Of a stretch of DNA of 64,000 nt, positions 21,044-57,803 are shown in pieces; position 1 is the first letter of the stretch; every line of letters begins with the position of its first letter. The notes under the pieces were generated by a model. That model had not been told where the DNA came from. It did no database searches and saw only the letters and a program-made list of their open reading frames with translations. The DNA comes from Sycon ciliatum (taxonomy: Eukaryota > Porifera > Calcarea > Leucosolenida > Sycettidae): assembly GCF_964019385.1 (NCBI RefSeq), contig NC_088653.1, positions 12,619,835 to 12,683,834 on the forward strand. The letters run 5' to 3'. A program made the translations under genes and the position numbers.

Positions 21044-21333
21044 CTGTACAAAAGTACAAGTACAACAAGCCGTAAAGGTCTGTGACCAAAACTTTAGAAT
21101 TATCATCAAGAGGCAAAACATCGTCTGAAAAGTCATTATTCAGGAAATGACTCAAGACGAACAGAGAGCTAGTCGCACATTGCGCCATAGATCTACATGT
21201 ATTATAACGGCGATTCCGTGTTCAGCCTAAACAAAAGTTTTCCCTGGCCCGCAAACTATTTTGAGTTTGCTGGGCTAGGGGCTTTGCGACTGTCGTGTGC
21301 TCGCTGCCTTTCCACTCGATTGACCTCAGTGAA

Positions 21334-24300
21334 ATGGAGGAGAACCAAGGAAATATTGCTCCGAGTCGGACATCCAGCCATGGGCTATCTCCCGACGAAG
21401 AACCACGGTCGTGTTCCTCTTCCCAGGCTCATCATTCCCCTGCCTCGGTGGATTGCCAAGCTGATGATCCTGCATCGTCGTGCTCATCGACGCCGCGGAC
21501 ACGCGCAACGCCGGTATCGTTACCCGATGGTGTGAAGAGGTTAGCTGAGATGCTGAAGAAGCGCTACGTAAGTGCTAAAGTACAGATTGGCAAGGGTATG
21601 TGTGTAAAACCGAATAGGCGAGCGCTGGATAAGATCTTTGTGAATGTGGTTGTGATACCGCGCGAAGAACTGGCTTCGCTGAACGAACAAACTTTCTTCG
21701 GTTCCCAAAGCGATGTGCAGAAGTTGAGCCATGTGTTCTCGCGAGTCGCGGACAAAGTGCAGCACGTGCAACTGGCCAATATGTTTGACTTTGACGGGGA
21801 AGAACTTGATGAAGACGAATCAGTTCGTGTATTGGCTGTTGCATGTGCTGGCGCTGGCAAGACGACCATATTCTTGTTGAAAGGTCCTATGGACTGGGCA
21901 AGAGGTCTGATCTGGCATGAGTTTGACATTGTGGGTGCATTGGCGCTGCGTGAACCCAGTGTTCGACACGCAAGTGATATAGTTGAGCTGCTACGCTTGA
22001 GGCAGCTTGGCATTGTCGATCCGAAGGAGCAAAATGAAATTGCATCCTACATCCATGCCAACCCGCGGCGTCTTTGTCTCGTATTCGATGGCTTAGATGA
22101 AACGGTTCTTGACGACTGTAGCGATTTTGTGCGTGGCATTATTTGCGGCGAGGAATTGAAAGGTGTTCGCTTGATTCTTACATCACGCCATTCAAAAGAA
22201 GTCATAAAACTGGCTCTCTCATGCCCATTTGACCGTCGCGTAGAAGTGCTGGGATTCACCAAGGACAATGTGCACGAATATGTAAACAATGTCCTCCCGT
22301 GCGAGCCGGCCAGCAAATTGCTTGAACGCGTCAATTCTGATCCGAGTTTAGCGGCCATTATGCAAACGCCTTTCTTCACGGAGTCGACCTGCGACGTTTT
22401 CCGTACTTATGGCTCTGTTCCTTCGTCACTGTTCGGCATCTTCATGTCTTTGATCCTGAGTATCGTTCGACAGAACACTGAGAGTGCGTATCCAGACTGG
22501 CCGTCCGTTCCTCGTATCTTGAAGGAGAGGATCCTGGAGTTGGGTCATTTTGCATTTCTGATGCTAGTTGGTAAGAAGGTGGTGTTCAGCGACCGTGACC
22601 TTGATGAACAGCAGGTGTCGAAGGAAAGTCGCTCACTTGGTCTTCTTGTGGCGTGCGAGTCACTGTCGTATCCATGCGTTGGTCAATGGCAGTTCAGCCA
22701 TCTTTCGGTTCAAGAATGCCTTGCTTCCCAGTACATTGCAGCCACTGTTCCGGATGCGAGTGACGTTAAATTCCTCGTGAGGCAGGTGGGAGCTTTGACT
22801 GGTCACTTGAGCACTTTTTGGTGTCTGCTTGCATCACAACTGGTTGCAGACGCGAAGGAAGCCTTAATTGCAGCGATTCTCACTCAGCCTGTTTCGGACG
22901 AGCAGGATATTCGCAAGCTGAAGGCATGTGAAAGTGTGACTCGTTTCTTTCGCTCTTCCGAGGACGATCTTCTGCTGGTGACAGAGGTTCTGTGTGAACA
23001 TCTCGACGATTCGGCCGTCCAGAGTCTGGCTGCTTGCGTTCTCACTGATCTACTAGCGGACGGTGTGAGTGTGTCTCAGGCTATCGAAGAAGTTCTTCCT
23101 CATTCTTTCGCTTCGTCATTGCAGGACTACGTTCGCGCTCTTCTGCGGCTGTGGCGGCGCAAAGTACCCCGCGCTAGCATCAGAATGCTATCTACCGCCT
23201 TGAAACCTATCAATCCCTATGCATCAACCCGCCTTCTTGAGTATTTCCATTCCAAGCCATCCACATCCCTTGACTCTGACCAATGTGCCTTGCACTCGCA
23301 AGAAGAGAAATCAGTCATGACTGCTTCGGTATCAAATTCAGTTTCGGCTATGCACGAAGTTCTCACACCTGTTCGCCGTCAACTGCTGTTACTTGCTTGC
23401 CGTGTGTATGCGCAGCCTGGAACGGATACAGGTGACGTGGCCAATGCTACACATTCACCCTCGCCTGCTTTAGAGGCAGCCTTCTTACACTATGGCTGCG
23501 ACTTTAGCAGCTTTTGCCTTTCTTCGGCGGATTGCTACCTTCTATCATCTGTGATTTCAGACCATCACATGTCTATCGGCACTATCTCCATTCGCGCCTG
23601 CCGGCTAGACGATCGTGCATTTGAGCTACTGGCACCAGCATTTGTTCAGTGTTGTGGATTATCGAAAGTCGAGCTTTCGTGTAATGCAATAACAAATAAT
23701 CTAGTGCCACTCATCTGTAACGTGATCCGCACAAACCGTTCGACTTTGCGCATACTGAACATGTATGATATGCAGTTGTCCTCATCTGGGTATGCACAGT
23801 TAGTACTGGCAATAGTTAGTTGTCACCGTATCAACCAGCTGTACATCGGTCATTTTCAGTGCCAGGAAATCACCACAAATATTCTCATATGCCTGGTCAT
23901 CCTGGCGTCCTGCAAGCTGCTGCATAACCCCGGTCTGCACTTTCATGTCGGCGATGAAGGTCTGTCCATGCTGTACCCCCTCTTGGTGTCACGGCCACGG
24001 TTATTACTGCAATTTCAGTGTGCAGGGCTATCATCATCGGGTGTATCAGTGATCAGGCGTGTTATCACAGTGAACAATAGACACCTTGCCGTGTTAGCTC
24101 TGACTGGTCTGTCCGAAATGCTCCTATTCACTCTGGCACCAAGCATTGTGTTGTGTAAAGCATTGGAAGCGCTGACAGTGCATGCTAGCACTCTCACTTC
24201 CGAGTCGCTTCCTGTGCTTGCTAGTATTCTACTATCATGCCCTATTGTCAGCTCTCTTGCTGTCGAAAACAGTGTATTCCGTCTTGAGAACGACGACGAT

Positions 24301-24456
24301 GAGGGGAGTATGCAGTTTGTCAGAGCTGTACGCAGGAGTAAGAAGTTCCACACACTTATAATGCCCCGTCGAGAGTTTGTGTATGATCGCCTGGCCAGGC
24401 TGCTTGCTAGTGTGGCTGTAGAAGTCGAGCGTGACCTGCGGATTGAGTACGGCTGA
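21334..24456 (+). CDS. NACHT-LRR (NLR) receptor-like protein, intronless
   Basis: The frame encodes 1,040 residues. The start is the ATG at 21,334, with a purine at -3 and G at +4; no earlier in-frame ATG is seen. Residues 1-65 are serine/proline-rich and look disordered. About 75-130 carries an LKKRY..IFVNVVVI segment as found ahead of NACHT domains. Walker A is ACAGAGKTT (K176), where the first residue of GxxGxGKT is alanine. DWARGLIWHEFD follows. Walker B is VFDGLDE (250-256), sensor 1 is LILTSR (280-285), and the winged-helix signature FSHLSVQE is at 454-461. From about 745 the C-terminus has degenerate leucine-rich repeats. NLRs are cytosolic pattern receptors that oligomerise on activation. 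No DEATH, CARD or other effector domain is seen. Upstream exons cannot be excluded. Confidence 0.9.
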   Translation: MEENQGNIAPSRTSSHGLSPDEEPRSCSSSQAHHSPASVDCQADDPASSCSSTPRTRATPVSLPDGVKRLAEMLKKRYVSAKVQIGKGMCVKPNRRALDKIFVNVVVIPREELASLNEQTFFGSQSDVQKLSHVFSRVADKVQHVQLANMFDFDGEELDEDESVRVLAVACAGAGKTTIFLLKGPMDWARGLIWHEFDIVGALALREPSVRHASDIVELLRLRQLGIVDPKEQNEIASYIHANPRRLCLVFDGLDETVLDDCSDFVRGIICGEELKGVRLILTSRHSKEVIKLALSCPFDRRVEVLGFTKDNVHEYVNNVLPCEPASKLLERVNSDPSLAAIMQTPFFTESTCDVFRTYGSVPSSLFGIFMSLILSIVRQNTESAYPDWPSVPRILKERILELGHFAFLMLVGKKVVFSDRDLDEQQVSKESRSLGLLVACESLSYPCVGQWQFSHLSVQECLASQYIAATVPDASDVKFLVRQVGALTGHLSTFWCLLASQLVADAKEALIAAILTQPVSDEQDIRKLKACESVTRFFRSSEDDLLLVTEVLCEHLDDSAVQSLAACVLTDLLADGVSVSQAIEEVLPHSFASSLQDYVRALLRLWRRKVPRASIRMLSTALKPINPYASTRLLEYFHSKPSTSLDSDQCALHSQEEKSVMTASVSNSVSAMHEVLTPVRRQLLLLACRVYAQPGTDTGDVANATHSPSPALEAAFLHYGCDFSSFCLSSADCYLLSSVISDHHMSIGTISIRACRLDDRAFELLAPAFVQCCGLSKVELSCNAITNNLVPLICNVIRTNRSTLRILNMYDMQLSSSGYAQLVLAIVSCHRINQLYIGHFQCQEITTNILICLVILASCKLLHNPGLHFHVGDEGLSMLYPLLVSRPRLLLQFQCAGLSSSGVSVIRRVITVNNRHLAVLALTGLSEMLLFTLAPSIVLCKALEALTVHASTLTSESLPVLASILLSCPIVSSLAVENSVFRLENDDDEGSMQFVRAVRRSKKFHTLIMPRREFVYDRLARLLASVAVEVERDLRIEYG

Positions 24457-49812: not shown

Positions 49813-49814
49813 GT

Positions 49815-50471
49815 ATATATGTAGGACTCAGTGACCAGTCAAGGCCCCATGACCAATCACGGTCCCCGTGACCAGTCAAACAGTCACAAACTCCCCATGA
49901 CCAGTCACAAATTAGTTTACCAGTCACAATGCCCCATGACCAGTCACAAATCACCATACATGTACATGTGTAAAGCACACATTTCATGACTGCTCGCGAA
50001 GTGCTTCGTACTGCAGGATTTGTTGTGGAAACTATAATTCCCTTTGAGCGGTCACAGAAAACAGTTGTGACCACTATAATTCCAAGCGAACAGTTATATG
50101 CGGAATGTACAGTTGCGACCACTCTTTCTCTGTGAGTAGTCACAGGCAGAATATAGGTATTTCTGTATTACAAGAGAGATTGGAAGCTTTGTCACAACTC
50201 TGAGTTTCCCGTATTACTACGATCGTCAGGCAACTGATCGCTCCAAAACGGGCAGCCTGAACATAAGGGGGAGTAAGGTGGGAAATTTTGAAGCGTATCA
50301 TATGCGACGTGTATCATAGCGCAAGAGTCAGGTGCAGGCGTGAAGTTGCCAAGTCTTCAGACTTGGGGATATGCAGCAGCAGTTTCAGCGTAAATGATAT
50401 AGAATAGAGCTGGGGACTTAAATGCCAAATCCACACATGCTCACACCCACACTCTGTCCCTTTTCTCACAT

Positions 50472-50683: not shown

Positions 50684-52288
50684 GCACTCTCTTTCTCACG
50701 CATGCACACAAACTCACACATGCACGCGCACACTTACTCACACACACACACACTCACACAAACACACACACAAATTGGCAGCGGGACTACCAGCTAGATT
50801 CACGTGACCTTGCGGACAAAGTTACGGAGGTAGAACTTGTTTTCATGACGACACTTGGACACAAGTATTTCTGTATAATTATTTTATCTCTTTTCAAACA
50901 ATCCACAAGCCAAGAAGAGATGCCTAGGCGGAAGAACCGTACTCTTGGTGATACTGATATGCCAGTTCAAGAACATCTCGTCAGACATACATATCGATAC
51001 ATGTCTGGTGCACTCTCACTAACAAGCAGGCATCGCAGGGTACATTCGCACTAGTAATCACAAGAAGTTGTAGTGAGGGAATATTTCTATAAAGTTAATA
51101 AGTAGAAGGAAAATACGTAATGGACAAAATTAATTAAGGTGTGGAGGATCGCCCAAAAACACTAACATAGAGACAGTAAACGGTACACAGTACTCGTATG
51201 CATGTACTTATAATACACGTTATAGCAGCACAACGAGAAAGACCATGACTGTACATGTGCCATAATGTTACACCAATAAGTTTTACAGAGATATTTTGGG
51301 AGTAGGAATGAAGATGTGTTCGAAGCAGTAAACTGCGTAAGCACTACGTTGAGCCACAATATTGAAATACAGTTTCCTGCAGTCAAAACAAGACACTCAC
51401 ACTTCTCTGGTCTAGTTCGCCATTATTATCGCTAACATGACTTGATTTTAATTTCTTACGATGGTTCTTGAGAATGGATCAATGATGTCTTGAATAGATG
51501 TCTTCCCTGAACGACTTCAACTGAGAGGCAGTTTCAGTTTCAACAAGCTGGACATTGTTTTCCTGTGGAGTCTTCCACAAGAAAGACAGAGCTACACACA
51601 CGAAGGTGCTTGGTGTACTCAGTACCTTCTTGGAGATGAACATATTTTCTTTTCCATCTTCATTATATTTTCGTCTCTGTATCGTCGACGATGTCCACTT
51701 CTGACTCTGTAATCTTGTCACCCATCCTCTCCAAAAACACAAAGCGAGTGCTGCTTGTATGCTGGATCAGTTGAAATCAGTCTCCGTTCTAGCAAGATCG
51801 GCATTCAAAAAAGTACTTGACTGAAAATATTCCGAAATAGCTTTTCTGAACGACGAAGTTTGTTCTTCAAATATGATGAATAGCACAATCTACTAGCCAG
51901 AACGTCCTCTCAAAAGAGATTCTATCTGAAGCCTGCAAGGTTTTCGACCACCCTTCGTTTTGGAGAGGAGCCCACACACACCAGACTCGAGCTACAAGTA
52001 AACTACGCGGAGATCGAGAGTTGACCGAAATCTTTCTTGCTCACTTCTGAAACCTGTGAAGGAAAAAAGTATGCTGATCGCGTGAATGCCTACAGGTGAG
52101 TCGTAATATTTTGACGTGGACCCTGTGACCGTTCACAGAGAAAGTCGCGGCTGTTTGTGACTGGTCATCGGGATCCAAACTGGTGTGTGACTTTATGACT
52201 GCTCTTCGGGGATTTGTGACTGTTTGATTGGTCACGGGGATCGTGATCGGTCATCGAGACGTGACTGCTCACTGAGTCCTACATATAA
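49815..52288. mobile_element. 2.47-kb TIR element with subterminal GTGACTGGTCA repeats
   Basis: The left tatatgtaggactcagtgac and right gtgactgctcactgagtcct then acatata are inverted ends. About 330 bp at the left and 180 bp at the right carry many copies of tgaccagtcaca or its complement, as transposase-binding subterminal repeats do. The interior has CA microsatellites and no transposase. It is non-autonomous; superfamily unknown. Confidence 0.7.
50466..50770. repeat. CA-rich microsatellite region
   Basis: (ca)n with cgcgcg and ctctct interruptions. Frames of alternating histidine/threonine across it are artefacts. Confidence 0.9.
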
Positions 52289-52410
52289 ACCCCAGGGGGG
52301 TATAATAATTATACTCTTTGATCCGCCGATAGATTTCGGCTTGGGTACGGCTGGTTGGTTGTGAATCACCCGACTTGTGGCCAAATGTGGTAAGCATTTG
52401 CATCAAAAGT

Positions 52411-52754: not shown

Positions 52755-52850
52755 AGGCTGAAGACGTCATCTGGTCATGGGACACAAAGCCTGGCTAAAT
52801 TCTATCCAAGCTAGTTATGGGCGTGACAGGATAATAATAATAATAATAAT

Positions 52851-53160
52851 TTTAGAATTGCGATCAACAGAACGAGCTGAACCGACATTTCACAAAGGCT
52901 TTTATTGTATTCAAAAAACGAGTGGATACGAAGGCAGTGAAGAAGTTAGAACATGGAAGAAAGAAAACATGTGAATTGGAGAAAATGATGAACAAAAAAT
53001 CGTACTTCGAACTAGTTTTCGCACAACACTCCTCAGGAAGCTACGTTGTACTAATGAAAAACAATCCAGAAAGATACTAATAAAGAGAAATGGAGTGAGA
53101 ATACAATAAAAGCCTTTGTGAAATGTCGGTACAGCTCGTTCTGTTGATCGCAATTCTCAA
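52851..53160. mobile_element. Inverted-repeat unit upstream of the Penelope-like ORF
   Basis: The arms 52,851-52,912 and 53,098-53,160 are inverted over about 61 bp (tttagaattgcgatcaacag at one end and its complement at the other). (aat)n tracts lie outside each arm. The loop contains a hammerhead motif on the minus strand. Penelope-like elements are known to carry such terminal units in inverted or tandem arrangement, so this may be a terminal repeat of this element or of a neighbour. Confidence 0.65.
53001..53045 (-). ncRNA. Hammerhead ribozyme motif (type seen in Penelope-like elements)
   Basis: On the minus strand, in order: stem I 5' strand cgtagcttc, core ctgagga, stem II gtgttgtgc, gaaa, a tiny stem III (aac/gtt closed by a two-base ua loop, with A15.1-U16.1), cleavage site uuc and stem I 3' strand gaagtacg. 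Stem I pairs eight bases with one bulged g. All core bases are present. Stem II is weak (one G-C and two wobbles). The very short stem III is known from Penelope-associated hammerheads. Confidence 0.65.
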
Positions 53161-53218
53161 ACTATTGTCGCCTCGACGCCTATTTAAATAATAATAATAA
53201 TAATAACACGTTTGGATT

Positions 53219-53250
53219 GTGTCTGCCTTGAGAAAGGACCGATTCGGCAC
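53219..53250 (+). ncRNA. Degenerate hammerhead-like motif, 5' copy
   Basis: gtgtctgcc and ggcac could pair with a bulge around ttgaga and ttc, echoing the layout of 55,969-56,009. The core is too altered to be active. It overlaps the first codons of the open frame. Confidence 0.3.
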
Positions 53251-55705
53251 ATGTAGCGACAATTATGATACTATTATTAATCTTGCCGATATCCCTTTGA
53301 CTCAACTACAAAAGGACGTGCTGTGTGGCGGTTTAGATTTTGGCATTCCTCCTAAACTCCACCGATTGGAGATGTTGGCGGAATTTGAGCTGCTCCAGCA
53401 GCAATTGTCCAAGGTACCAGCAAAATCTGACGAAACAGCAGCGGCTTGCCGGGCGTCTCTGGCTGCCGAGGCACACAGGTTTGCGCAGTCCTCTCCTGAC
53501 ACCCGGTCTTTTTCACTCACACGAGAGCACCTCAAAGTCATGAGGGAGCTCCGAACAAATCCGGATATCATTATCTCCCGCCCGGACAAGGGTAGGGCAA
53601 CGGTTATTATGTCAAGGGAGGACTACCAAACCAAGATGATGGTCATACTAGAGGATAAGACAAAATTCTGCAGACTCGGACCGTGCGATGTATATGACCA
53701 TACAGAAAACATCGACACTAAACTTAGCAAATACCTATTGTCTCTTTCAAAAACACATCAAATTTCTGATTATGAGTACGACCATCTGGCGCCGACGGGA
53801 TCAACACGACCACGAATGTACGGGCTCCCAAAAATTCACAAGAAGAACATTCCCTTACGACCAATACTCAGCATGTCTGGGTCACCGCAATTTAAAACAT
53901 CCAAGTGGCTATGTGCCATGCTACAACCGGTACTCAACCTCTACAATAGCCACTGCGTCAAAGATACTTTCGAGTTTGTAGAAAAGCTAAAGGACGCACG
54001 CTTTGAATCGAGCGGATTCATGTGCTCGTATGACGTGGTGAGCTTATTTACTAACGTGCCACTACGGGAGACCATTGACATCTGCGCAACAACACTGTAC
54101 CACAATAAGTCCATTACTCCGCCGTCTTTGAACGAAACGGAGTTTGTGAAACTCATGTTAATGGTTACGTCGGGCGTTGAGTTTTCATTTGGCAACGTTA
54201 TGTATAAACAAATAGATGGCGCTGCCATGGGCTCGCCGCTTGGTCCTGTATTGGCTAATATCTTTGTAGGGTTCTGTGAAGCGTCCATTAGTCCATCATT
54301 GTGGCCCTCTATGTACTGTCGTTTTGTAGACGATGTGTACTGTCACGATGAGGATGAGGATGTCTGTGGGACTTTTCTACTAACTCTGAATAGTCTCCAC
54401 CCGGCGTTGAGATTCACGTCGGAAGCGGAACAAACCGGCAGCTTATCCTTCTTGGATGTACAAATATCACGGAATATTAACACTAAGAGTTTGGACACCA
54501 CTATCTATAGGAAGCCAACGTTCACCGGCCTCTACATTCCGTGGGGGAGCTATACTCCAACGAAATCGAAGAGACATCTTGTGAAGGCGCTAGTTTATCG
54601 TGCACATAGAATATGTTCCCCTCATCTATTGCAGGACGAATTAGACAGACTGACATCAATATTTACGAACAACGGCTATCCAAAGGAATTTCTGGCCAAG
54701 CTAATCAACGAAAAACCGGTGACAGACAAGCCTATCCAATTTGGACCTGACCGTTGCCCAGTGGTGCTCCGTTTACCCTGGGTTGGCACCGGTTCTGCGC
54801 GCGTGGAGAAGGATGTTCGTGGTATCGTATGTCCATCATATCCGTGCGTCAAGCTGTACGTCATATTTGGGACAGTGCGTGCGTTCAGTGTGAAGAAGGA
54901 TGTTCTACCTACCCTTAGTAAAAGTAACCTTATCTATTTCTTTCAATGCCGACAATGTGAAGATCGGTATGTAGGTAGAACCCTTCAGCACCTGGGCGCA
55001 CGCATTCGTCAACATGTGCCGTTAAGTTGTGTTCCCCTTGATGCGCGCGATTGTCGTCCTCGCCGTGGTCGTCCTCCAAAATGTGCTGTCCAGTCCATCG
55101 GTGGATCTTCCTCTTCCCGTGAAGATGTGACTGCATGCCCGTCCTCCTCTGCGTGTGTAGGACACGGGCCAGCTGAGAACAGCATAAAAGATGGTGAAAG
55201 ACCCACACGTAAACCACCGAAACTGACAAAGGATCTGTCGGCGTCGGAAAGGGTGACGAGAAGCCAAGTGAAAATACGGACTGATGAGGACGAACGTACA
55301 ACGACAACGGAAGTGACAACAACAGTCAATATTCGAAAACGTGGTAGACCGCGAAAACTAACCTCAATATCGGACACCGGACAAGTTGGAGTAAGAAGCT
55401 CAATAGAAATCCGCAATGGAGGATACGTAACGGAAAGGACACCGGGTATCGCGCACCCAACGGTTAGTGTCAAGAAACGTGGAAGGCCGCGGAAACGCGA
55501 AGAGACAGATAGTGGTGATGCCACGAAGAGGCGAGATGACGGGACATTGGAGGAGACAACACGGTTACACCCAGTGGAGCTAAGAATCGCACTTCGTCAA
55601 TCAAGCAACATCAGTCAGCCCGTACCAATTGTCGTGAGTTGTACAGTGATAATGTTTTCTCAATATTGTCACGTGGTAGATGTGCGTTACATTTGGCTGT
55701 GTTAG
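53219..55705 (+). CDS. Penelope-like reverse transcriptase with GIY-YIG endonuclease and AT-hooks
   Basis: 828 codons, open from a non-ATG position, so the true start is unknown. The RT has GLPKIHKKNIPLRPILS, SYDVVSLFTNVPL, GAAMGSPLGPVLANIF and the catalytic FVDDVY (around 54,325), followed by LSFLDVQISR and IYRKPTFTG. These form the Penelope signature set. From 54,930 comes YFFQCRQCEDRYVGRTLQHL, the first half of a GIY-YIG endonuclease with its CxxC. Then lie about 200 residues with three AT-hooks (RRGRPPK, RKRGRPRK, KKRGRPRK). The second half of the endonuclease (SDNVFSILSRGRC, LEALYIRKLDPELC) is in another frame from about 55,594 to 55,790. The protein would nick DNA and reverse-transcribe the element; the frame change inactivates this copy. 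Confidence 0.85.
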   Translation: MSALRKDRFGTCSDNYDTIINLADIPLTQLQKDVLCGGLDFGIPPKLHRLEMLAEFELLQQQLSKVPAKSDETAAACRASLAAEAHRFAQSSPDTRSFSLTREHLKVMRELRTNPDIIISRPDKGRATVIMSREDYQTKMMVILEDKTKFCRLGPCDVYDHTENIDTKLSKYLLSLSKTHQISDYEYDHLAPTGSTRPRMYGLPKIHKKNIPLRPILSMSGSPQFKTSKWLCAMLQPVLNLYNSHCVKDTFEFVEKLKDARFESSGFMCSYDVVSLFTNVPLRETIDICATTLYHNKSITPPSLNETEFVKLMLMVTSGVEFSFGNVMYKQIDGAAMGSPLGPVLANIFVGFCEASISPSLWPSMYCRFVDDVYCHDEDEDVCGTFLLTLNSLHPALRFTSEAEQTGSLSFLDVQISRNINTKSLDTTIYRKPTFTGLYIPWGSYTPTKSKRHLVKALVYRAHRICSPHLLQDELDRLTSIFTNNGYPKEFLAKLINEKPVTDKPIQFGPDRCPVVLRLPWVGTGSARVEKDVRGIVCPSYPCVKLYVIFGTVRAFSVKKDVLPTLSKSNLIYFFQCRQCEDRYVGRTLQHLGARIRQHVPLSCVPLDARDCRPRRGRPPKCAVQSIGGSSSSREDVTACPSSSACVGHGPAENSIKDGERPTRKPPKLTKDLSASERVTRSQVKIRTDEDERTTTTEVTTTVNIRKRGRPRKLTSISDTGQVGVRSSIEIRNGGYVTERTPGIAHPTVSVKKRGRPRKREETDSGDATKRRDDGTLEETTRLHPVELRIALRQSSNISQPVPIVVSCTVIMFSQYCHVVDVRYIWLC

Positions 55706-55941
55706 AAGCTTTGTATATCCGTAAGTTAGATCCTGAACTTTGCGTACAGAAAGAAAATGTGTTGTCGCTACAATTGTTTGGTGTTACTCCTCGTCGAGGT
55801 GGTAACAATGTAATTTCATTTGCTCACTATGTTGTTGTCACTATTATTATTTTCCTTCGAGTTTTGTGTCGTGCTAAACTTGATAATTTTCCACCTTGTC
55901 ACGAGTGTTGTTATCTAATTATCTTTACGCTATATAAGTTT
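55594..55941 (+). pseudogene. Endonuclease C-terminus in shifted frame and 3' region
   Basis: The plus-strand frame overlapping the end of the main ORF encodes RELYSDNVFSILSRGRCAL and EALYIRKLDPELCVQKE, the usual ending of Penelope-type GIY-YIG domains. After about 55,790 the sequence becomes low complexity and hydrophobic and is probably 3' UTR. Confidence 0.7.
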
Positions 55942-55968
55942 TAGTCTTTCCAGCTTGAGCCATTCCCT

Positions 55969-56009
55969 GTATAATCCTTGATGAGAAGGGACCGAAAACG
56001 TTCGGATAC
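55969..56009 (+). ncRNA. Degenerate hammerhead-like motif, 3' copy
   Basis: Layout: stem I gtataatcc/ggatac (with a bulge), core ttgatga (C3 replaced by T), gaaa, aacgttc as minimal stem III with cleavage site uuc. Stem II (gaagggacc) pairs poorly. Probably decayed. Confidence 0.4.
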
Positions 56010-56168
56010 TTATGACAAGTGCCTTATTATGACTGGATGTGTGTTTGCGTGGATATTTGCGACCCATAACTTACCTTCGTTTTAAAGTATTATCCGCCCC
56101 CGACCTCATTTAAAAAAATAATAATAATAATAATACGAAGTAGTGGTTGCGACCTCGGCGATGATTTG

Positions 56169-56552
56169 TAAGAAAAGGGTTTGCTCCCCACACCGGAGCT
56201 CGCGCTATTCCGCCGACTTTACTTGACACTTGACTGACTCACGACTGCCATCCAGAGCACACGAGAAGTCCATCGAACCTTCGACTCGGCAAACCTGCAA
56301 GAAAGCACCACTCCCTGCTCAATACACAGTGTTTCGGGGAATTCACCCCTCATCTCAAGCTCAACTGATGAGGGGTGAATTCCCCGAAACACTGTGTATT
56401 GAGCAGGGAGTGGTGCTTTCTTGCAGGTTTGCCGAGTCGAAGGTTCGATGGACTTCTCGTGTGCTCTGGATGGCAGTCGTGAGTCAGTCAAGTGTCAAGT
56501 AAAGTCGGCGGAATAGCGCGAGCTCCGGTGTGGGGAGCAAACCCTTTTCTTA
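56169..56552. repeat. 384-bp near-perfect palindrome
   Basis: The arms 56,169-56,353 and 56,368-56,552 are 185 bp each and appear to be exact reverse complements around a 14-bp spacer, ctcaagctcaactg. (aat)n tracts flank both sides. Because of the symmetry both strands encode the same peptide frame (MTDSRLPSRAHEKS), which is not evidence of a gene. Confidence 0.9.
56359..56404 (+). ncRNA. Hammerhead ribozyme, complete core and three stems
   Basis: In order: stem I gctcaa, core ctgatga, stem II gggg..cccc closed by a six-base loop, gaaa, stem III aca/tgt with loop ctg, cleavage triplet gua, and stem I 3' strand ttgagc. Stem I pairs six of six bases, stem II four G-C pairs, and stem III three pairs including A15.1-U16.1. 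All invariant core bases are present. The left half sits in the spacer and the right half in the arm of the palindrome, so the opposite strand lacks the ctga part. Cleavage would follow 56,398. Confidence 0.8.
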
Positions 56553-56744
56553 ATAATAATAATAATAATAATAACGTATGAGGAGAAGAGAGCGTGATCA
56601 TCACCAATGACTCGCAATGGTTGCACACGCTGCTGTGCAAGGCGGCATGCCCATCACGTATACTTATTATTTTTATTAATTTTTTTAACAACTGAAGTGC
56701 AAGCGCACCATCACCAGACAACATGAAAGTGTCAGAACAGTTAA
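56553..56744. other. (AAT)n and unique linker
   Basis: An (aat)n tract at 56,553-56,573 and about 170 bp of unique sequence ending in the TTAA target of the next element. Confidence 0.5.
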
Positions 56745-57715
56745 AGGGGAAGTGCATCGATTTTTCGAGTAGGGTCCAGAAGAAAGACAATTTGATATCG
56801 GTTCGAATGGCATATCTCTCGCTTCCATACGATAAGCCAAACTTGCCAAATCGCAAATTGTATGCTCACGTTGCCATAGCGACCAGAGCAGTGATGACGT
56901 ATGAAAGGCTTAGCTCCTCCACAGAGAAGGTCGATCACTGCAGAAATTGGTCATTTTTCAATTGTCTTATTGTATTCACGAAGTGAAAGAAGTGCTGTGT
57001 TCAATGCTGTTAGTGTCGTGAACTATTTATCGCCCTTCTCATGCATTTCCCTAGGCTGACTGCGCCTAGGAAATGGTTTCCTCCAGGACAAGATGCTTGG
57101 AATTCGCCATCTCTCCTGAGACATTTTCTGCAAACTTTCAAACCTACGACATTATTTCATTCGTCAATCTCCACCACCCGTCGTCTCACCTGGCTTCAGA
57201 AGATGTTACGAGAGATAGCAGAGTCGCCAGGAAGCATCACATTCATCTTCAGGAAGTGGAAAGAGCAAACGGCATGGTCCTTGGTTGGGGGAAATGCTGA
57301 ACGTCTGATTTGTCCCAACCAAGATTTCAGCATTTTGTTCGTCACTATTTTCGCTTGTCTGCTGGTGTCTCCGCACTCCAGCTTTCTCCTGTCGGTGTCA
57401 CGTCCCAGTACACAACCGAGAGGACTACTAACAAACAGTTCACTGCACTAACAGCATTGAACACAGCCCTTCTTTCACTTCGTGAATACAATAAACCAAT
57501 TGAAAATGACCAAATTCTGCAGTGATCGACCTTCTCTGTGGTGGAGCTAAGCCTTTCGTACGTCATCACTGCGCTGGTCGCTATGGCAACGTGAGCATAC
57601 AATTGTCGATTTGGCAAGTTTGGCTTATCGTATGGAAGCGAGAGATATGCCATTCGAACCGACATCAAATTGTCTTTATTCTGGACCATACTCGAAAAAT
57701 CGATGCACTTCCCCT
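56745..57715. mobile_element. 971-bp foldback element with 280-bp TIRs and TTAA flanks
   Basis: TTAA lies at 56,741-56,744 and 57,716-57,719. The arms 56,745-57,024 and 57,435-57,715 are inverted copies, starting aggggaagtgcatcgattt. TTAA duplication is characteristic of piggyBac-like transposition, though the arms are unusually long. The interior of about 410 bp has overlapping frames, none recognised. Confidence 0.8.
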
Positions 57716-57803
57716 TTAACTGCAGTTAAAACACACCATTCTCGACCTTGCGTGCGTAGATTCCTACAAAAAGTGAATTGTTTTATACTCCGAGAGTAGA
57801 ATT

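What the first reader, a model, noticed from the sequence alone, without database searches (positions are those of the whole stretch)
56359..56404. Complete hammerhead ribozyme at the centre of a 384-bp palindrome
The 46-nt motif has every invariant hammerhead core base, stem I 6/6, stem II four G-C pairs, a three-pair stem III and a GUA cleavage site. It straddles the spacer and right arm of a 185-bp inverted repeat, next to a Penelope-like element. Hammerheads in Penelope-like elements are established knowledge. Embedding one in an exact foldback, where only one strand has the full motif, is unusual. A transcript would have to choose between a huge hairpin and the ribozyme fold, which could switch self-cleavage.
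Basis: partly seen in the sequence, partly recalled or inferred. Interest (0 to 1): 0.85.

Follow-up and report, generated by a model that had tools for sequence, protein, structure and literature searches.

The report
Ribozyme element with Penelope-type insertion scars
The self-cutting RNA motif in this palindrome belongs to one copy of a small, repeated, protein-less mobile element that appears to be inserted by Penelope-type retrotransposons, and its two-ended insertion scars bear on how such ribozyme elements move.

Summary
The hammerhead motif (56359-56404) and the 384-bp foldback are real. The motif is complete by descriptor; Rfam ranks Hammerhead_1 first, at 20.5 bits against a cut-off of 34. 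The foldback is not a special ribozyme device. It is one copy of a genome-wide non-coding family ("B", 479-bp unit with a TATA-like box and the hammerhead, some copies with tandem units). Copies are two arms joined head to head. Outer ends are fixed (unit position 229 with a 35-nt tail, or 194-202 without); inner junctions are scattered, so a ribozyme at the palindrome centre is an accident of this copy (2 of 22 assessed). Of 26 B copies with both ends read, 25 have one end of each kind, mostly in (AAT)n. Penelope-like coding families here show the same scar: A 16 of 16 loci (13 of 13 distinct), P 7 of 10. Best reading: a retrozyme-like RNA inserted in trans by a Penelope reverse transcriptase-endonuclease, through paired priming from two start sites (inferred; helper not identified). 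In this copy the hairpin beats the ribozyme fold by about 62 kcal/mol, so it is probably silent; in full unit transcripts the ribozyme costs 1.1-1.3.

The parts
56359..56404 (+). type I hammerhead motif, predicted cut after 56398
   Evidence: descriptor scan; Rfam Hammerhead_1 20.5 bits, below cut-off 34
56134..56552 (.). element B: one copy of the 479-bp family, two arms head to head
   Evidence: both outer ends called; arms mapped on the unit (left arm unit 229 back to 9, right arm 475 to 194)
56169..56354 (-). left exact palindrome arm (inverted unit, lacks hammerhead C3, U4 and the 5' strand of stem I)
56367..56552 (+). right exact palindrome arm, ends at unit position 194 (S end, no tail)
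56355..56366 (+). 12-nt spacer carrying the stem I 5' strand and C3-U4 of the ribozyme
56134..56168 (-). 35-nt tail on the left arm only, ends at unit position 229 (T end)
56117..56134 (+). (AAT)n between the Penelope-like element and B
56551..56574 (+). (TAA)n on the right of B
53205..56116 (+). 5'-truncated copy of the coding Penelope-like family P (open frame 53207-55705; degenerate hammerhead 55974-56008; 3' end with tail)
   Evidence: weak RVT_1 and GIY-YIG matches in the right order; near-full copies at 94-99% elsewhere, stop-to-stop frames mostly about 1,025 aa; ends; no Rfam hammerhead hit at E up to 10
52849..53186 (-). element A: short copy of another Penelope-like family, also a foldback with a tail on one arm
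   Evidence: arms 52845-52912 / 53099-53166; family
53004..53041 (-). hammerhead-like motif of element A (core CTGAGGA)
   Evidence: descriptor scan; Rfam Hammerhead_1 10.5 bits, E 6.4
52831..52848 (+). (ATA)n on the left of A
53187..53204 (+). (AAT)n between A and P

Best explanation
B is a non-autonomous, non-coding, hammerhead-bearing retroelement (479-bp unit: hammerhead at 1-46, starts of reverse transcription at about 194-202 and 229, TATA-like box 52 nt upstream of the hammerhead core). A tandem or circular B transcript is used in trans by a Penelope-type reverse transcriptase-endonuclease. The enzyme makes a staggered cut, mostly in (AAT)n. Each of the two 3' ends primes one cDNA: one starts at site T (229, leaving the tail), the other at site S (194-202). 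The cDNAs run towards the RNA 5' end for variable lengths and are joined head to head. In the window copy they happened to stop 13 nt apart near the hammerhead, which gives the near-perfect palindrome with one full ribozyme and one cut off at G5. Shown by sequence: the family, the unit, fixed outer ends, the one-of-each end pattern, the target, scattered junctions, the same scar in Penelope-like coding families. Inferred: trans mobilisation, paired priming, self-cleavage, a circular template.
For: Genome: 162 matches to B (palindromic arms match on both strands, so there are fewer copies; 40 of 577 candidates were scored). Unit consensus from 17 monomers, 14 of exactly 479 bp. Ends: of 40 loci examined, 26 had both ends called, 25 T+S, 1 S+S (L054), 0 T+T; 14 had one end called. 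Family A: of 21 loci, 16 have both ends, all one S and one T; 4 have one end; L102 is left out because its S call lies at the locus edge (my count); 13 of 13 after dropping L094, L095 and L104, which share flanks with others. Family P: of 20 places, 10 distinct copies have both ends read, 7 of them T+S. In A the pattern holds in both orientations of the AAT strand (5 one way, 4 the other, 4 unclear or not AAT), so primer sequence alone does not explain it. L026 has a 13-bp target duplication outside AAT. TATA-like box 52 nt from the hammerhead core in B, 47 in 6 of 7 P repeats, 46-47 in 3 of 3 of the 75% subfamily. The two arms of L025 differ at several sites, so they come from two templates. 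The Anolis Penelope cuts both strands, prefers 5'-ATT-3' and starts at two sites that define the tail (PMC11167929, passages).
Against: B has no detectable similarity to the P, A or 75%-subfamily ends: the helper is not identified. P fits in only 7 of 10: L064 has two starts in the S region, L059 and L061 (repeated in L062) have T plus a start elsewhere; two further P copies with one end read end at neither site (L112 at 106, L124 at 63). No TATA-like box in 10 of 10 A repeats printed, and none in 1 of 7 P repeats. The Anolis study saw no difference of start site between strands. The 26 B copies were not formally deduplicated (their flanks differ by eye, though several lie in one other repeat); L032, L036 and L052 hold further unpaired ends. 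L029 laps differ at positions 145-146, against one circular template. No transcript, circle or cleavage data. B copies are young, so an unchanged hammerhead is weak evidence of selection.
Confidence: 0.8

Rival explanations
1. Snap-back self-priming: one cDNA folds on itself and copies itself, giving the palindrome (self-priming is the model proposed for rotifer Penelope in PMC3846280).
For: The window copy alone fits (186 exact bp, 12-nt loop); published palindromes at inverted junctions.
Against: In 22 B copies assessed the two inner ends lie within 21 nt in only 4 (2.0 expected by chance, p = 0.13); outer ends are of two kinds; L025 arms carry different variants.
Confidence: 0.1
2. A regulated ribozyme: the hairpin switches self-cleavage on and off in transcripts of this locus.
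For: Hairpin and ribozyme folds exclude each other by pairing.
Against: 62 kcal/mol in favour of the hairpin, with pairs across the spacer as soon as the right arm emerges; a hammerhead at the junction is not a family trait.
Confidence: 0.03
3. A foldback DNA transposon or MITE with long terminal inverted repeats that carries a hammerhead by chance.
For: Long inverted repeats, AT-rich target.
Against: Arms of unequal length, tail on one arm only, tandem 479-bp units inside arms, scattered inner junctions.
Confidence: 0.02
4. Assembly artefact (a read folded on itself).
For: 186 bp without a mismatch.
Against: The two sides differ in the tail; other copies on many contigs have other junctions.
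Confidence: 0.02
5. B is an internal-deletion derivative of a coding Penelope element that I did not find, and is moved by that parent, rather than a retrozyme-type RNA of other origin. (This overlaps with the best explanation on how it inserts.)
For: Similar TATA-hammerhead spacing and the same end pattern as P.
Against: No coding remnant or sequence match to the three related families looked at; the rest of the genome was not searched for such a parent.
Confidence: 0.25

Closest known systems
Metazoan non-LTR retrozymes (Cervera and de la Pena 2020, PMC7229834, passages seen)
   Same: Non-coding, type I hammerhead in each unit, tandem units of a few hundred bp, many copies, coexisting with Penelope elements
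   Different: Unit 479 bp (they give 150-450), GC 54% (theirs under 50%), TATA-like box present (a review says retrozymes seem to lack promoters, PMC7761336, passages), and Penelope-type two-ended insertion scars; circular RNA not tested here
Penelope elements with inverted pLTRs and tail (Adineta vaga, PMC3846280, sections 6 and 11 read whole, other passages)
   Same: Inverted head-to-head terminal repeats of about 180-220 bp, a tail on one of them, AT-rich targets, target duplications of 8-10 bp in the cases given
   Different: B codes for no protein; its junctions are scattered; the paper's main text has 0 occurrences of 'hammerhead'
Poseidon of Anolis (PAc, PMC11167929, passages seen)
   Same: Two reverse-transcription starts define the tail, cuts 5'-ATT-3' on both strands, hammerhead near the pLTR-ORF junction
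   Different: No difference of start site between strands was seen there; here 25 of 26 B insertions have one end of each kind

Membership tests
Type I hammerhead ribozyme (RF00163) | score at or above the Rfam gathering cut-off | tested here: not met
   20.5 bits against 34
Type I hammerhead ribozyme (RF00163) | conserved core and three stems in the order of type I | tested here: met
Type I hammerhead ribozyme (RF00163) | self-cleavage | not testable with these tools
   needs an assay
Metazoan retrozyme | no protein-coding region | tested here: met
   translated unit matches the Penelope loci fetched only where B copies themselves lie; unit frames; in a fetched copy no Rfam family reaches its cut-off and no tRNA is found
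Metazoan retrozyme | tandem units of 150-450 bp with a type I hammerhead | tested here: inconclusive
   tandem units with the motif, but 479 bp, above the range
Metazoan retrozyme | GC below 50% | tested here: not met
   54%
Metazoan retrozyme | expressed as circular RNA | not testable with these tools
   no RNA data
Penelope-like element (B as a member) | encodes reverse transcriptase and GIY-YIG endonuclease | tested here: not met
   B is non-coding
Penelope-like element (B as a member) | inverted terminal repeats with a 30-40 nt tail on one of them | tested here: met
   25 of 26 copies with both ends called; 14 further loci had one end called
Penelope-like element (P in the window) | reverse transcriptase followed by GIY-YIG endonuclease | tested here: inconclusive
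   4 of 4 aligned proteins (two of them P) match RVT_1 (best 1.2e-5) and GIY-YIG (best 0.013); in the member shown in full both are below Pfam cut-offs, order RT then EN
Penelope-like element (P in the window) | pLTR-ORF-pLTR with tail | tested here: met
   in other copies of the family, e.g. L059; the window copy is 5'-truncated
Penelope-like element (P in the window) | minimal hammerhead in the pLTR | tested here: inconclusive
   motif kept in the copies but with TTGATGA in place of CTGATGA; no Rfam hammerhead hit

The most novel reading that the evidence does not exclude
A retrozyme-type ribozyme RNA is mobilised in trans by Penelope enzymes, and Penelope integration follows a one-of-each rule: an insertion joins two cDNAs, one begun at each of two RNA start sites, one on each cut DNA strand, perhaps set by an asymmetric enzyme dimer.
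Probability: 0.55. Interest if true: 0.8.

Novelty: new variant of a known kind. Interest (0 to 1): 0.6.

Why it matters
What moves metazoan retrozymes is open: PMC7229834 and PMC7761336 (passages) name Penelope elements as likely candidates from shared hammerheads, tandem copies and co-occurrence, and PMC8969392 (passages) repeats it. Here a ribozyme-bearing, protein-less family carries the Penelope-type insertion scar itself. The one-of-each end pattern gives Penelope integration a simple testable model and would explain why inverted pLTR pairs bear the tail on one side. In nine searches of the held library and the passages read I saw neither point stated; many papers are not held, among them Cervera and de la Pena 2014, Arkhipova 2017 and Lunse 2017.

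Tried and rejected
Rejected: foldback DNA transposon, assembly artefact, snap-back self-priming as the general route for B, and a functional switch (see rivals). Tried without result: Penelope relatives in viral contigs and genome contigs (none confirmed); exact B patterns there (0); a general hammerhead pattern in viral contigs gave 9 contigs in unrelated context. PDB by sequence and by profile: best E 0.37. A-B and B-P tails are not similar above shuffles; A-P are (0.0006 of 5,000 shuffles). That S arms look longer than T arms I do not use: loci were chosen by matches that favour long S arms. One search printed its results and then stopped with an output error; for L029, L042 and L048 its overlaps are artefacts of a very short second arm, and its gap rows may be unaligned arm sequence. 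The 22 inner-end pairs were copied, leaving out L029, L032, L042 and L048. In one search the figures for A used 17 and 14; my recount is 16 and 13, so its A and pooled probabilities are not used. Matches of the A query at about 2600-2730 are a B piece inside L102 and are not counted as A.

Full report
OBSERVATION. The window holds an exact 384-bp foldback (arms 56169-56354 and 56367-56552, spacer 12 nt) with a complete hammerhead motif at 56359-56404 on the + strand. By a descriptor written after the motif was seen, the window has 3 exact-core motifs where 0.08 are expected (60 simulated windows), or 3 against 0 in 200 with tighter limits. Rfam puts Hammerhead_1 first over its full length but at 20.5 bits, under the cut-off of 34; scaled by my own arithmetic to 64 kb and one family, its E-value would be about 0.0008. 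Larger searches do not list it (110 on another copy); there the foldback matches miRNA families below their cut-offs.

SURROUNDINGS. Four (AAT)n-type arrays at 52831-52848, 53187-53204, 56117-56134 and 56551-56574 bound three elements: a short foldback A with a second hammerhead-like motif on the - strand, a 5'-truncated Penelope-like element P (open frame 53207-55705), and B, the finding. P and its relatives match a reverse transcriptase and then a GIY-YIG domain, weakly: 4 of 4 aligned proteins match both, and in the one shown in full both scores are below Pfam cut-offs. P keeps a degenerate hammerhead (TTGATGA) in its terminal repeats; Rfam finds none there.

THE FAMILY. The window lies in an assembly of 538 Mb in 313 contigs; I was not given the species. 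B has 162 matches, a count that includes both strands of palindromic arms and comes from 40 scored of 577 candidates. I fetched 39 loci from the listed matches. Seventeen monomers, 14 of exactly 479 bp (the others 477, 478 and 490), gave a consensus unit. It starts with the hammerhead (1-46), shows no coding match, no Rfam family at its cut-off and no tRNA, has GC 54% and a TATA-like box 52 nt before the hammerhead core. P has one at 47 in 6 of 7 repeats, the 75% subfamily at 46-47 in 3 of 3, A none in 10. Of 75 hammerhead copies counted in the 39 loci, 68 hold the identical 46 nt.

ANATOMY OF A COPY. Mapped on the unit, copies show two arms that meet head to head. The outer end of one lies at position 229 (T, with the tail), that of the other at 194-202 (S, without). 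Of 40 loci examined (39 and the window), 26 had both ends called: 25 T+S, 1 S+S (L054), 0 T+T; 14 had one end called, and L032, L036 and L052 hold further unpaired ends. Of 25 T ends, 22 face outward TTA repeats; of 27 S ends, 24 face outward AAT repeats. The 26 were not formally deduplicated; flanks printed differ by eye. L026 sits outside AAT with a 13-bp duplication of TGTAGTAAAACGG. Arms run from about 5 nt (L029, read) to 1,982 nt, or 4.1 units (L019). Inner ends are scattered: in 22 assessed copies the two lie within 21 nt in 4 (2.0 expected, p = 0.13), and only the window copy and L026 have both near the hammerhead. The palindrome centred on a ribozyme is therefore a coincidence of this copy.

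SAME SCAR IN CODING FAMILIES. Family A is taken as Penelope-like from a 724-aa frame in L102, 47% identical to P in the alignment, and from fragments in L085 and L086. Of 21 A loci, 16 have both ends read, all one S and one T; 4 have one end; L102 is left out (edge). Three share flanks with others, leaving 13 of 13. The strand of the AAT repeat is one way in 5 and the other way in 4 of these 13; 4 are unclear or not AAT, and L085 and L088 show short target duplications by eye. P: of 20 places, 10 distinct copies have both ends read; 7 are T+S, L064 has two starts in the S region (114 and about 119), L059 and L061 have T plus a start elsewhere (L062 repeats L061). Two P copies with one end read end at neither site (L112 at 106, L124 at 63). 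T+T was seen in none of 49 copies (26 B, 13 A, 10 P).

MECHANISM. Shown: fixed outer ends, mostly one of each kind, a common target, scattered inner junctions, two different templates in one copy (L025). Inferred: a staggered cut, two primed cDNAs from two RNA start sites, joining. Work on the Anolis element gives the parts: both strands cut, ATT preference, two starts that make the tail, hammerhead cleavage not needed for insertion and itself helped by the protein (PMC11167929, passages). It reports no start-site difference between strands, which the pairing seen here refines or contradicts. PMC3846280 (sections 6 and 11) describes inverted pLTRs, the tail on one of them, and proposes self-priming; the scattered junctions speak against self-priming as the main route for B. 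Whether the template is a circle or a tandem transcript stays open: 418C>T is in every lap of the L018 left arm, 408T>C and 418C>T in every lap of L029, but L029 is mixed at 145-146.

THE RIBOZYME. Keeping the hammerhead fold costs 0.5-2.4 kcal/mol in unit transcripts of various lengths with an assumed start at unit position 462, and 1.1-1.3 in two full-unit transcripts; it costs 5.1-5.3 in the isolated right unit of the window copy, but 62 in the whole copy and 51 in its nascent transcript. The left arm begins at G5 of the core, so it lacks C3, U4 and half of stem I; that is why one strand alone has the motif. I expect this locus to be silent for cleavage.

KNOWN AND NEW. B looks like a metazoan retrozyme and appears to be inserted like a Penelope element. 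It fails the Penelope coding test and the retrozyme GC figure, and its unit is a little over the retrozyme range, so I file it as a variant: a non-autonomous, hammerhead-bearing satellite of Penelope elements. That Penelope elements move retrozymes has been proposed (PMC7229834, PMC7761336, passages). The scar is genomic evidence for it in this genome; the helper is not identified, since B shares no detected sequence with the ends of P, A or the 75% subfamily.

Noticed in passing
window 50191-50234 (-): A third hammerhead-like motif by descriptor (core CTGACGA), without a hammerhead hit in Rfam, between the arms of an inverted-repeat pair 49813-49924 / 52179-52290.
   Followed up: partly
window 56738-57028 and 57433-57722: A second large inverted repeat, 94.5% over 291 positions with about 404 nt between, ends CAGTTAAAGGGG / CCCCTTTAACTG; looks like an unrelated foldback element.
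   Followed up: no
L057-L066 terminal repeats: Family P keeps a degenerate hammerhead (TTGATGA instead of CTGATGA) nearly unchanged in the copies seen; its role is unclear.
   Followed up: partly
window about 55330-55510: The Penelope-like protein has AT-hook-like RGRPRK motifs near its end (Pfam AT_hook E 0.0041).
   Followed up: no
window 21265-24456 (+): Long open frame with a NACHT domain (Pfam E 4.2e-11), perhaps an NLR-like gene.
   Followed up: no
B unit, about 50 nt before the hammerhead: The TATA-like box of B lies inside a short inverted repeat (GTGCCTGGAGAGCAC ... GTGCTCTTCAGGCAC; read).
   Followed up: no
L018, L019, L030, L040, L091, L096, L097, L102: B copies lie within about 1 kb of A or P copies, as in the window.
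   Followed up: partly
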